NCBI GenBank assembly: GCA_021234155.1
Contig: JAJEKV010000074.1
Location: 832,154 to 896,153, forward strand
Length of the DNA stretch: 64,000 bases
Direction of reading: 5' to 3'
Source of the DNA: Isoetes taiwanensis
Lineage: Eukaryota; Streptophyta; Lycopodiopsida; Isoetales; Isoetaceae
The notes beneath the pieces were generated by a model, which was not told where the DNA came from, did not search any database, and saw only the letters and a program-made list of their open reading frames with translations. Below are positions 48,435-50,464 of the stretch, piece after piece; the first letter of the stretch is position 1, and every line of letters starts with the position of its first letter. The position numbers and the translations under genes were made by a program.

Positions 48435-48450
48435 TTGGTATCAAAGCATG
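48435..48450 (+). other. Primer-binding site after the arm 2 LTR
   Basis: TTGGTATCAAAGCATG matches the plant initiator-tRNA-Met primer site TGGTATCAGAGC with one change. It marks the start of an internal region running rightward, toward the histone-containing frame. Confidence 0.8.
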
Positions 48451-48531
48451 ATTTTGGGAGACCAAATCATTGCACTGGCCATAGTCTAACTCATTAGTTT
48501 GGGACGACATTGTCTTAGGTTACACTATCCC

Positions 48532-48655
48532 AACTCTTTAGTAGTGAGGAGGCAGTTCTCCTTCCTCCTCACTTGCTTTGTAACATTACCATTCTTTTAA
48601 TATATTGATGACACAGTTCTTCAAAAAAAAAAAAAAAAAAAAAACTCTTTAGTAG
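48532..48655 (+). mobile_element. Short poly-A retroposon insertion with 13-bp target duplication
   Basis: AACTCTTTAGTAG occurs at 48,532-48,544 and 48,643-48,655. Between the copies are 78 nt of unique sequence and a run of about 22 A (48,623-48,644). A target duplication of this length with a 3' poly-A is the product of LINE-type target-primed reverse transcription: a severely 5'-truncated LINE or a small retroposon. It is young relative to its surroundings because the duplication is perfect. Confidence 0.88.
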
Positions 48656-49194
48656 TATGTGGGTTGACCTACTTATAGGAGGACTAATTTAGTTGGGTAG
48701 GAAGGTATTAACTAGTAGGGCAAGTATGTTAGGTTGTGGAGCAAAGAGGTCGTGTGTTCGAGGCCCATAACTTTCTCTAGGTAGATCGGATGGACGAGAT
48801 TTTTGCATTAACATGTCGGGCACGGTCCATTTACTATAGGGGCGTCAATATCCGGCATCAAAATGATAACAGAAGGGTCCAAGACCTAAGTGCGCGCCGC
48901 TGTATTTTTGGCGTCTTAGAATTCAAAAAGAAAGCTGTATTTTTCCAGCGACGCACACGTATAAAATGCGTATTCTCGCCATATAATTTAAAAAAAAAAG
49001 TTTTAAAAAAAAGATTGGATTTTAAAATAGAGTGACGGTTATCTTTTTTTTTTTTTGCTTTTATCTTTCCGCCTAGCGCCTTGCCTCGCCCGTCTGCCAT
49101 AGCCACAGGAGAGAAAGCTTGCTCCCCTTGCCTCGCATTCGACCTCCACCACTACCGCCTACCAGCGCCTCCTTTCCACCCGTCCTTCACACCC

Positions 49195-50464
49195 ATGAAC
49201 ATGGCCCGTACCAGAGGTTACATCAGTTACAGTAACCTCAATGCCCCTCAAATATTTGCTGAGCTCAGTGAGCAACTTGCTAGCAACCCCAAGAAGGTGG
49301 AGCTGCTCTTGGTCGAGCTGGTGCAATGGTTCGTCGCCGGACATAGGGTCCCTTACCCTATCTTCCATTTGTCATAGCGGTTCTTGCTAGAACTTAACCT
49401 CCTTCGGACCCTATCCCGACCAAGTTCTCATGCTAGTCAAGTTCTATCCACCCTCGTGTGTAGAAGTTCTCGAGGATGAAGCTATCCGGATAGAAGCCGA
49501 GAGAATCCGAGAGCTAGCCCCAGGAGATGATACCCAGGAGATGGAGAGGGGAGATCCGAAGGTCTGAGGGTTGGAGTACGTCTACCTGGGAGATGGGAGA
49601 GCCATTATAGATGGAAATCCCTTCGACCTTCCCCGCTACCAGTATGACGAGGCCACCCAAAGCTTTGCTTGGGGTGAAGTTCTGTAACACCTAACGGTCG
49701 ATCACCTGATAGCCATCCAGCTGGATATGCAGGCTAGACCGGACCGGTATCATGCTGAGCTACTGTGAAGGGTTACTGCTCGCCGCCTCGCAGAGGTGGA
49801 AGAGCGCATGGCAGTTGCACATGCCGCGCAACAGGAGACAAAGTGCGCTGAGTAGCAACGGCAGGCAGAGGAGCTTGCCAAGCAAACTCAGGATCAACAG
49901 CAGCACCAGCCCAACCCAGAGTAGAATACCCAGTGGGCTCCCGACCAGACTGAGACCCCTGTAGTGAAGCGAAGGCGGAAGTCCATCGCCCATAAGTTGG
50001 GGAGTGCCTATAAGGAAAAGCTCAAGACCGTTGGGGGCATTGGGAAGGCGACGAGCTCCGCCCGTCAGCAAGACCGAGTGGATGCATCTCAGCCTCGACC
50101 AGTAACAGGGGGCAAGACCCTGCCCAAGAAGCTGACGCAGTCCCAGAAGTCGGTGCAGCCAAAGAAGTCGCACAGGTATCGGCCCGGGACCGTGGCATTG
50201 AGGGAGATTCGGAAGTACCAGAAGACGACTGAGCTTCTGCTACGGAAGCTCCCCTTCCAGCGCCTGGTTCAAGAAATTGCACAAGAATATCGGACCGATC
50301 TTCGGTTGCAGACCTTTGCTATGCTTGCACTTCAGGAGGCCGCCGAAGATTACCTGGTAGCCCTTTTTGGGGATGTCAATCTTTGTGCCATACATGCCAA
50401 AAGGGTCACCATCATGACCAAGGATCTGGCTCTTGCTCGAAGGAATCGGGGAGACCATAACTAG
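49195..50464 (+). pseudogene. Retroelement ORF1 with C-terminal histone H3 domain, degenerate
   Basis: After a pyrimidine-rich leader the frame opens at ATGAACATGGCC (49,195 or 49,201). It reads into LSEQLASNPKKVELLLVEL, shifts frame near 49,405, and continues in one frame to 50,464. That frame crosses five stops (near 49,576, 49,686, 49,767, 49,854 and 49,922). The middle is acidic, then a Gln/Ala/Glu-rich probable coiled coil (EVEERMAVAHAAQQE), then a basic KRRRK. The last 166 codons (49,964-50,464) are open. From about 50,100 they align with a histone H3 tail (TGGKTLPKKLT, KKSHRYRPG). From 50,165 to the stop they give the complete H3 fold, including ALREIRKYQK, RKLPFQRLV, LQEAAEDYLV and NLCAIHAKRVTIM. 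A primer site and LTR precede it. The N-terminal part resembles no gag I know. Confidence 0.85.
50162..50464 (+). other. Histone H3 fold domain within the fused frame
   Basis: Residues correspond to H3 about 36 to 135. Loop 1 has canonical H3 length (EYRTDLRLQTFAM), not the longer CENH3 form, and the CENH3-typical Trp is absent. Cys110 and His113 equivalents (LCAIHAKR), Lys56 (KYQK), Lys115 and Lys122 are kept. Lys79 is Arg, Pro121 is Thr, and Ile130 in the dimer helix is Asn (ARRNRG). AAEDYLV is more CENH3-like than the usual ASEAYLV. No stop or frameshift interrupts this part, in contrast to the sequence before it. Confidence 0.92.

What the first reader, a model, noticed from the sequence alone, without database searches (positions are those of the whole stretch)
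48435..50464. Histone H3 fused to the C-terminus of a retroelement-like ORF downstream of an LTR and primer site
Directly seen: an LTR end, a tRNA-Met-type primer site, a leader, then a frame of about 400 codons whose last third is a near-complete histone H3, tail remnant included. Established: plant Ty3/gypsy elements carry gag, protease, RT, RNase H, integrase and sometimes a chromodomain or an extra ORF; I know of no lineage carrying a histone. Inference: a retroelement or nonautonomous derivative captured an H3 gene and made it the C-terminus of its first protein, perhaps to package DNA or to load onto chromatin. The H3 part is the only uninterrupted segment, which hints at stronger or later constraint.
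Basis: partly seen in the sequence, partly recalled or inferred. Interest (0 to 1): 0.92.

Follow-up and report, generated by a model that had tools for sequence, protein, structure and literature searches.

The report
Plant retrotransposon that encodes histone H3
A large family of jumping genes in a plant genome carries its own histone H3, the protein that packs DNA, built into the end of one of its proteins and preserved by selection; no such element turned up in the papers searched.

Summary
Confirmed and extended. The window holds a decayed Ty3/gypsy chromovirus copy whose first protein (ORF1, about 420 aa) ends in a histone H3 fold. In the same 1.66-Gb genome 149 further matches were scored (capped list). 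Of 30 loci picked by ORF1's non-histone N-terminus, 28 carry H3 remains right after it (22 nearly whole); 19 have a perfect primer site one base after the LTR end. Three copies read further show ORF1-H3, ORF2, gag, RT; the two scanned with Pfam also encode protease, RNase H, integrase and chromodomain. In the H3 core median dS is 1.05 and dN/dS 0.067, against 0.13-0.22 elsewhere in ORF1. The 22 element H3s tested form one clade (100/98). The tail lacks the K4, K9 and K27 motifs in the four copies aligned; the core keeps its main contact residues (roles recalled). So: one old capture under strong purifying selection. Most likely the protein enters chromatin as a histone and anchors element complexes or resists tail-directed silencing; this is inferred. 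ORF2, unknown to Pfam, has one metagenomic homologue.

The parts
47711..48434 (+). 3' end of the 5' LTR (remnant); an inverted LTR piece, 47028-47715 (-), abuts it
   Evidence: LTR end CGTCATA 48428-48434 and K2P 0.115 to the 3' LTR
48436..48447 (+). tRNA primer binding site, TGGTATCAAAGC
   Evidence: sequence; 19 of 30 sister loci have TGGTATCAGAGC one base after the LTR end
49201..50464 (+). ORF1, decayed here: N-terminal part, coiled-coil-like middle (by eye), basic linker, histone H3 core
   Evidence: open 420-421-aa homologues in L027, L033, L035
49925..50161 (+). basic linker and degenerate H3 tail of ORF1
50162..50455 (+). histone H3 core of ORF1 (98 residues, no stop)
50701..52107 (+). 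ORF2, decayed here: conserved protein without a Pfam match
   Evidence: P0121 E 7e-83; tblastn pieces 50719-51156, 51165-51965, 51967-52098; open 461-aa homologue in L032
55696..55923 (+). gag remnant
   Evidence: Retrotrans_gag 3.7e-05 (just above its cut-off), Ty3_capsid 4.4e-06 (below its cut-off)
57084..57551 (+). reverse transcriptase remnant; no integrase or chromodomain was recognised between here and the 3' LTR (read by eye, not searched by profile)
   Evidence: RVT_1 2.5e-15 on 57273-57551; frames
58210..58219 (+). polypurine tract before the 3' LTR
   Evidence: sequence
58220..62360 (+). 3' LTR, TGTGACG...CGTCACA, 4.1 kb here (1554 bp in the C1033 copy, so probably holding an insertion)

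Best explanation
SHOWN: a multicopy Ty3/gypsy chromovirus of the form LTR, primer site, ORF1 (about 320 aa of its own plus histone H3), ORF2, gag, protease, RT, RNase H, integrase, chromodomain, polypurine tract, LTR. The element H3s tested form one clade, so H3 was captured once, before the copies diverged to a median dS of about 1 in the H3 core, and that core is the most constrained part of ORF1. INFERRED: the ORF1 protein enters the nucleus, its H3 core pairs with host H4 and is built into nucleosomes (on the element's own DNA or at target sites) by host histone chaperones. Where a normal H3 has its tail, it displays the ORF1 N-terminal module. So it works as a nucleosome-embedded anchor for element complexes, beside the integrase chromodomain, in a form that cannot be marked at K4, K9 or K27. 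I put 0.97 on the entity, about 0.65 on the H3 core acting as a histone that pairs with H4, and about 0.4 each on anchoring and on escape from silencing (not exclusive).
For: 150 scored matches to linker plus H3, the window among them (8665 first-look candidates). 28 of 30 loci picked by the N-terminus alone carry H3 remains directly after it, 22 of them over 94 or more residues, and 25 of 30 show ORF2; 23 of 30 H3-picked loci show ORF2. LTR end plus perfect primer site in 19 of 30, against 0 of 600 shuffled controls. gag, PR, RT, RNase H, INT and chromodomain in both copies scanned; ORF1-H3, ORF2, gag, RT in the same order in three of three copies read on. dN/dS 0.067 in the H3 core (39 stop-free of 51 rows, 627 pairs), lower than linker+tail in 375 of 389 pairs and than the middle in 33 of 36. 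Element H3 clade 100/98; S57T, S86T, H87F and I124L in 22 of 22. The window copy keeps 24 of 25 listed contact positions, among them R42, R63, R69, R83, C110, H113, K115, R116, T118, K122 and D123 (their roles are recalled). Tail without K4, K9 and K27 motifs in the four copies aligned.
Against: No expression, protein or binding data. The H3 core is not lower in dN/dS than the N-terminal 90 residues in 63 of 211 pairs, and two close pairs show linker dN/dS of 1.28 and 1.96. 2 of 30 loci lack H3 within reach and 6 have only part or a broken one. 11 of 30 showed no primer site; in the C668 copy neither a primer site nor an LTR match was found in the stretches fetched. R72, a DNA contact (recalled), is Q in the window copy; 16 of 22 copies have P121T and 16 of 22 I62L. 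The structure model of the H3 piece alone was poor (pLDDT 51). No homologue of the non-H3 part in the protein collection (run with the decayed copy). One genome only.
Confidence: 0.62

Rival explanations
1. Escape from silencing is the main function: a K9- and K27-less H3 is placed on the element's own chromatin, so H3K9me2-directed DNA methylation cannot be maintained there.
For: The K9 and K27 motifs are gone in the four copies aligned while the core stays constrained. A precedent of a host domain captured by a plant Gypsy element to counter a host mark is the orchid AlkB m6A demethylase (PMC9289625, passages and section 12).
Against: No methylation, small-RNA or expression data. Loss of the tail also fits anchoring.
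Confidence: 0.35
2. Packaging: ORF1 wraps or condenses the element's cDNA or RNA inside the particle, as a nucleocapsid-like protein.
Against: gag has its own capsid domain, and in L034 a weak zinc-knuckle hit below cut-off. Packaging would not need the contacts for H3-H3' pairing that are kept (roles recalled).
Confidence: 0.15
3. Sequestration: the H3 core titrates H4 or H3 chaperones of the host.
For: Shared changes S86T, H87F and V89I lie where plant H3 variants differ (87, 90) and could alter chaperone choice (role recalled).
Against: DNA-contact residues would not need to be kept.
Confidence: 0.1
4. Chance insertion of a host H3 retrogene into one element copy.
For: The window copy alone could not exclude it; the H3 frame is the longest unbroken stretch of that ORF.
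Against: 150 scored matches, 28 of 30 by N-terminus, one clade, median dS 1.05 with dN/dS 0.067.
Confidence: 0.01
5. A host gene family (H3 variant with a long N-terminus) that only happens to sit near LTRs.
For: Many open frames of 420 aa and more; 11 of 30 loci without a primer site.
Against: LTR end and primer site at a narrow spacing in 19 of 30; gag and RT downstream in three of three copies read on; matching LTR pieces on both sides in two of them, 96.5% (431 bp) and 97.7% (133 bp).
Confidence: 0.02

Closest known systems
Retrosat2 / RIRE3 / RIRE8 / FRetro3 (grass Ty3/gypsy elements with ORF0)
   Same: Ty3/gypsy with an extra sense ORF upstream of gag-pol; LTR inverted ends of TGTCACACCC...GGGCGTGACA type; ORF0 evolves fast and its role is unclear (PMC3485330, passages)
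   Different: The word histone does not occur in that paper's main text; LTRs over 3.2 kb against 1554 bp in our C1033 copy; one upstream ORF, here two; homology of ORF0 with ORF1 or ORF2 not tested
Orchid Ty3/Gypsy elements with an AlkB (2-ODD) domain
   Same: A host domain was captured in an extra ORF and kept (PMC9289625, passages and section 12)
   Different: Tat-like with dual RNase H, other domain; their screen of 121 angiosperm genomes reports 15 extra domains and names no histone in the section read; its supplements were not read
Plant chromoviruses (Ty3/gypsy with integrase chromodomain)
   Same: Domain order and chromodomain, Met-type primer site (type recalled)
   Different: Two extra upstream ORFs, one with histone H3
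Host histone H3 / H3.3
   Same: Core 72-86 of 98 identical to a plant H3.3, PF00125 well above cut-off
   Different: N-terminal fusion of about 320 aa; tail degenerate; shared substitutions S57T, S86T, H87F, I124L, Q125A (H87F in none of 61 database segments, the others in a few)

Membership tests
Ty3/gypsy chromovirus | LTR with TG...CA ends, primer site, polypurine tract | tested here: met
   (primer site in 19 of 30 loci)
Ty3/gypsy chromovirus | gag, PR, RT, RNase H, INT in that order | tested here: met
   L032 and L034, split over open frames; integrase core above cut-off in L032, just below in L034; in the window copy only gag and RT pieces were matched
Ty3/gypsy chromovirus | chromodomain at the integrase end | tested here: met
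   PF00385 1.8e-09 in L032, 2.5e-08 in L034; not seen in the window copy
Ty3/gypsy chromovirus | RT falls in a chromovirus clade | not tested
   no reference RTs at hand; the genome search with RT did not complete
Retrosat2 / RIRE3 group | sense ORF upstream of gag-pol | tested here: met
Retrosat2 / RIRE3 group | LTR longer than about 3 kb | tested here: not met
   1554 bp in the C1033 copy; 4.1 kb in the window, probably with an insertion
Retrosat2 / RIRE3 group | ORF0 homology | not tested
   no ORF0 sequence fetched; one search found only P0121 for ORF2
Histone H3 | core histone fold by profile | tested here: met
Histone H3 | residues for H3-H3' and DNA contact (recalled list) | tested here: met
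   24 of 25 listed positions kept in the window copy, R72Q the exception
Histone H3 | N-terminal tail with K4, K9, K27 | tested here: not met
   four copies
Centromeric H3 (CENH3) | longer loop 1 (recalled) | tested here: not met
   98 core columns align to H3.3 without gaps

The most novel reading that the evidence does not exclude
A mobile element encodes its own histone variant, unmarkable at K4, K9 and K27, and builds it into host nucleosomes to hold its machinery on chromatin and keep itself from being silenced, with a chromodomain that may read H3 marks in the same element.
Probability: 0.4. Interest if true: 0.96.

Novelty: new variant of a known kind. Interest (0 to 1): 0.9.

Why it matters
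Histones are known in some viruses (recalled), but a retrotransposon lineage with a fused, strongly constrained H3 did not appear in the listings of the ten paper searches run here (open-access library only). It would show that a transposon can meet chromatin silencing by supplying the substrate itself rather than a reader or enzyme. It gives a natural fused H3 with a degenerate tail to test what the tail and the residue 86-90 patch do. It also suggests that most H3-like frames in such a genome may belong to transposons (135 of 150 scored rows are not full-length host H3), which matters for histone annotation.

Tried and rejected
P0092, a 242-aa metagenomic H3, first looked like a fused relative: 6 of 2000 shuffles and 4 of 5000 both-shuffled controls reached its linker score, and the tree paired it with the window copy at 87/84. 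With 22 element copies it fell elsewhere, and the R79 and D98 it shares with the window copy are not the common state of the copies; dropped as a relative. Early tests on the window copy alone (BLOSUM test: 12, 16 and 25 of 300 null runs at or above the observed value; transversion excess 6 of 500) were weak or indirect and are superseded by dN/dS.

The H3 piece drew 8000 of 8000 scored H3s, 120 listed; among these a local comparison picked out P0092 alone as a possible linker relative. Viral contigs: nothing for P0121, H3 plus linker, ORF2 pieces, an open ORF1 or an open ORF2. ORF1 and ORF2 are not detectably related (hhalign probability 0.4%). The fold model of the H3 piece was too poor to use. 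No Rfam match in 46000-63000. H3 block as a LINE-borne retrogene: longest repeat between leader and the stretch after ORF1 is 9 bp, none of 10 bp between leader and the stretch after ORF2; one 11-bp match lies between the stretches after ORF1 and after ORF2. In the tree three database rows (P0053, P0061, P0075) were dropped beforehand; the window copy and three duplicate loci were left out.

Full report
WHAT WAS CHECKED. The window's frame 49925-50464 encodes a complete H3 core (PF00125 E 9.6e-38; PDB H3.3 E 2.7e-47). Upstream, 49397-49924 is coding in the same frame by codon-position GC (p=1.4e-9) although it has five stops; a further 60 codons from 49195 lie in another frame. The LTR end and primer site are at 48428-48434 and 48436-48447. 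A second LTR end lies at 62354-62360; between the two are gag and RT remnants, a polypurine tract and the start of the 3' LTR (58220). The two LTR ends differ by K2P 0.115 over 666 aligned sites, so this copy is old; its ORFs are broken.

COPIES IN THE SAME GENOME. After many busy replies the own-genome search answered: the window lies in a 1.66-Gb assembly of 1110 contigs, and the linker+H3 query matched in 150 of 150 candidates scored (8665 passed the first look), the window itself among them, all at E below 1e-67, the others 65-84% identical. A query with only the first 200 residues of ORF1 from one copy, which holds no histone, also matched in 150 of 150 scored (3458 first-look candidates). 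Of its 30 loci, 28 carry H3 remains directly downstream on the same strand: 22 over 94 or more residues, six partial or broken, two none; 25 show ORF2 in reach. Three of these 30 had been fetched before. Of the 30 loci, 23 show ORF2. In 19 of the 30 N-terminus loci a perfect TGGTATCAGAGC stands one base after an LTR end of the form GGGAGC(G/A)TCACA, 588-785 bp before ORF1; 0 of 600 shuffled upstream stretches had such a site. A host gene family or a chance insertion does not explain this.

ELEMENT ANATOMY. Three copies were read about 8 kb up and 10 kb down. All three show ORF1-H3, ORF2, gag and RT in this order. In the C1033 and C1056 copies Pfam finds Ty3 capsid, aspartic protease, RT, RNase H, integrase zinc finger, integrase core (just below its cut-off in C1056), SH3_Tf2-1 and a chromodomain. 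The C1033 copy's 3' LTR runs from TGTGACG after a polypurine tract to CGTCACA, 1554 bp. Matching LTR pieces on both sides are 96.5% identical over 431 bp in the C1033 copy and 97.7% over 133 bp in the C1056 copy, so these are young; in the C668 copy no LTR match was found in the stretches fetched. So the family is a chromovirus with two extra ORFs before gag. ORF2 (461 aa, open in L032) has no Pfam match; its one relative found in 5.8 billion proteins is P0121, 471 aa, 39% identical over 98%, from a 2953-bp metagenomic contig (the 8000 candidates sharing most words were scored). Whether that contig also encodes an H3 could not be seen.

SELECTION AND ORIGIN. With the window copy and duplicates left out, 39 stop-free H3 cores (of 51 rows) give median dN 0.071, dS 1.05, dN/dS 0.067 (627 pairs). 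The N-terminal 90 residues give 0.126 (35 of 44 rows stop-free, median dS 0.51), the middle 0.204 (17 of 43, dS 0.57) and linker plus tail 0.223 (48 of 56, dS 1.08). The H3 core is lower than linker+tail in 375 of 389 pairs, than the middle in 33 of 36 and than the N-terminus in 148 of 211. The first set alone gave 0.068 for H3; there two close pairs had linker values of 1.28 and 1.96. Caveats: pairwise NG86, dS near saturation, related pairs, and loci chosen by similarity. The 22 gapless, stop-free element H3s tested (the window's among them) form one clade at 100/98 against 58 database H3s, with S57T, S86T, H87F and I124L in 22 of 22 and Q125A and G102A in 21 of 22. Of these states H87F occurs in none of 61 database segments, the others in a few. 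So H3 was captured once and kept. The donor is not resolved: with 98 columns many forks are open, and the best database identity of any copy (87 of 98) is to a Phytophthora H3, one more than to a plant H3.3 (86). Host H3s are ordinary: a plant H3.3 query found 15 full-length rows at 97-99%; the other 135 of 150 rows match at 72-87%, and all but one start at residue 9 or later, as element H3s do, though not each was inspected.

HOW IT MOST LIKELY WORKS. The window's core keeps 24 of 25 positions that I recall as important for H3-H3' contact and DNA binding, while the tail is reduced to GKT and KKPH with no K4, K9 or K27 motif in the four copies aligned. In place of the tail comes a conserved module of about 250 residues, coiled-coil-like by eye, and a basic linker. 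The simplest reading is a protein that enters nucleosomes with host H4 and displays the ORF1 module outside. From there it could anchor element complexes, next to an integrase that carries a chromodomain, or make chromatin that the K9 and K27 methylation systems cannot mark. The first step (acts as a histone) I put at about 0.65; the purposes at about 0.4 each, not exclusive. All of this is inference.

COMPARISON WITH THE KNOWN. Extra ORFs in plant LTR elements are known, most often between pol and the 3' LTR (PMC7264820, introduction and passages; the word histone does not occur in its main text). Retrosat2, RIRE3 and RIRE8 carry an ORF0 before gag-pol, of unclear function (PMC3485330, passages). 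A screen of 121 angiosperm genomes names PMD, G-patch, AIR1, DUF1409, YgdH, L26, B3, ArgoL2 and 2-ODD among 15 extra domains, with a filter of five consensus sequences per species; no histone is named in the section read, and its supplements were not read (PMC9289625, section 12). A rice and sorghum survey of captured genes does not contain the word histone in its main text (PMC3726574, passages). A 2025 review names the orchid AlkB case (PMC12786077, passages). The listings of ten paper searches showed no retrotransposon-encoded histone; the library is open-access only. I therefore call this a new variant of a known kind: a chromovirus by anatomy, with a histone as a lasting part of its coding set.

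LIMITS. One genome, unnamed; no relatives could be searched. The protein collection was searched with the decayed ORF1 only. The question whether sister gag-pol lineages lack ORF1 was asked five times and never answered. No expression data.

Noticed in passing
window 47028-48434: Two LTR ends stand head to head (47028-47715 minus, 47711-48432 plus), an inverted LTR pair next to the primer site; the C1033 copy also has an inverted 4.9-kb second copy beside it (L031 562-5439 against L032 4344-9221, 94.3%).
   Followed up: partly
window 48532-48656: A short poly-A-tailed insert in the leader flanked by a perfect 14-bp direct repeat, AACTCTTTAGTAGT, like a SINE or truncated LINE.
   Followed up: partly
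window 50701-52107: ORF2 is a conserved 461-471-aa protein without any Pfam match, seen after ORF1 in 25 of 30 and 23 of 30 loci, with a single metagenomic homologue found (P0121).
   Followed up: partly
window 52290-52567: A possible small third ORF after ORF2; one frame is open for 92 codons, codon-position GC p=0.008; no homologue was sought.
   Followed up: no
window 53300-55560: GC-rich insert without codon periodicity on the plus strand at 53301-53850; by eye its minus strand reads like a decayed LINE RT, but three minus-strand frames had no Pfam match. A duplicated stretch of about 40 bp and a palindrome of about 50 bp lie at its right end (by eye).
   Followed up: partly
window 58220-61660: The 3' LTR is 4.1 kb here against 1.55 kb in a sister copy, so an AT-rich insertion probably lies in it; 60669-61052 resembles 17218-17596 (71%).
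   Followed up: no
window 10262-10864 (-) and 25831-26475 (-): An alpha/beta hydrolase (Abhydrolase_3) gene piece and an integrase zinc-finger piece of another retroelement.
   Followed up: no
G000: Most H3-like frames scored in this genome look transposon-borne: 135 of the 150 rows are not full-length host H3. Automatic histone annotation of such genomes may be misled.
   Followed up: partly
P0092 (JGI metagenome, 242 aa): An H3 with a long N-terminal extension whose linker resembles the element's; probably unrelated.
   Followed up: yes
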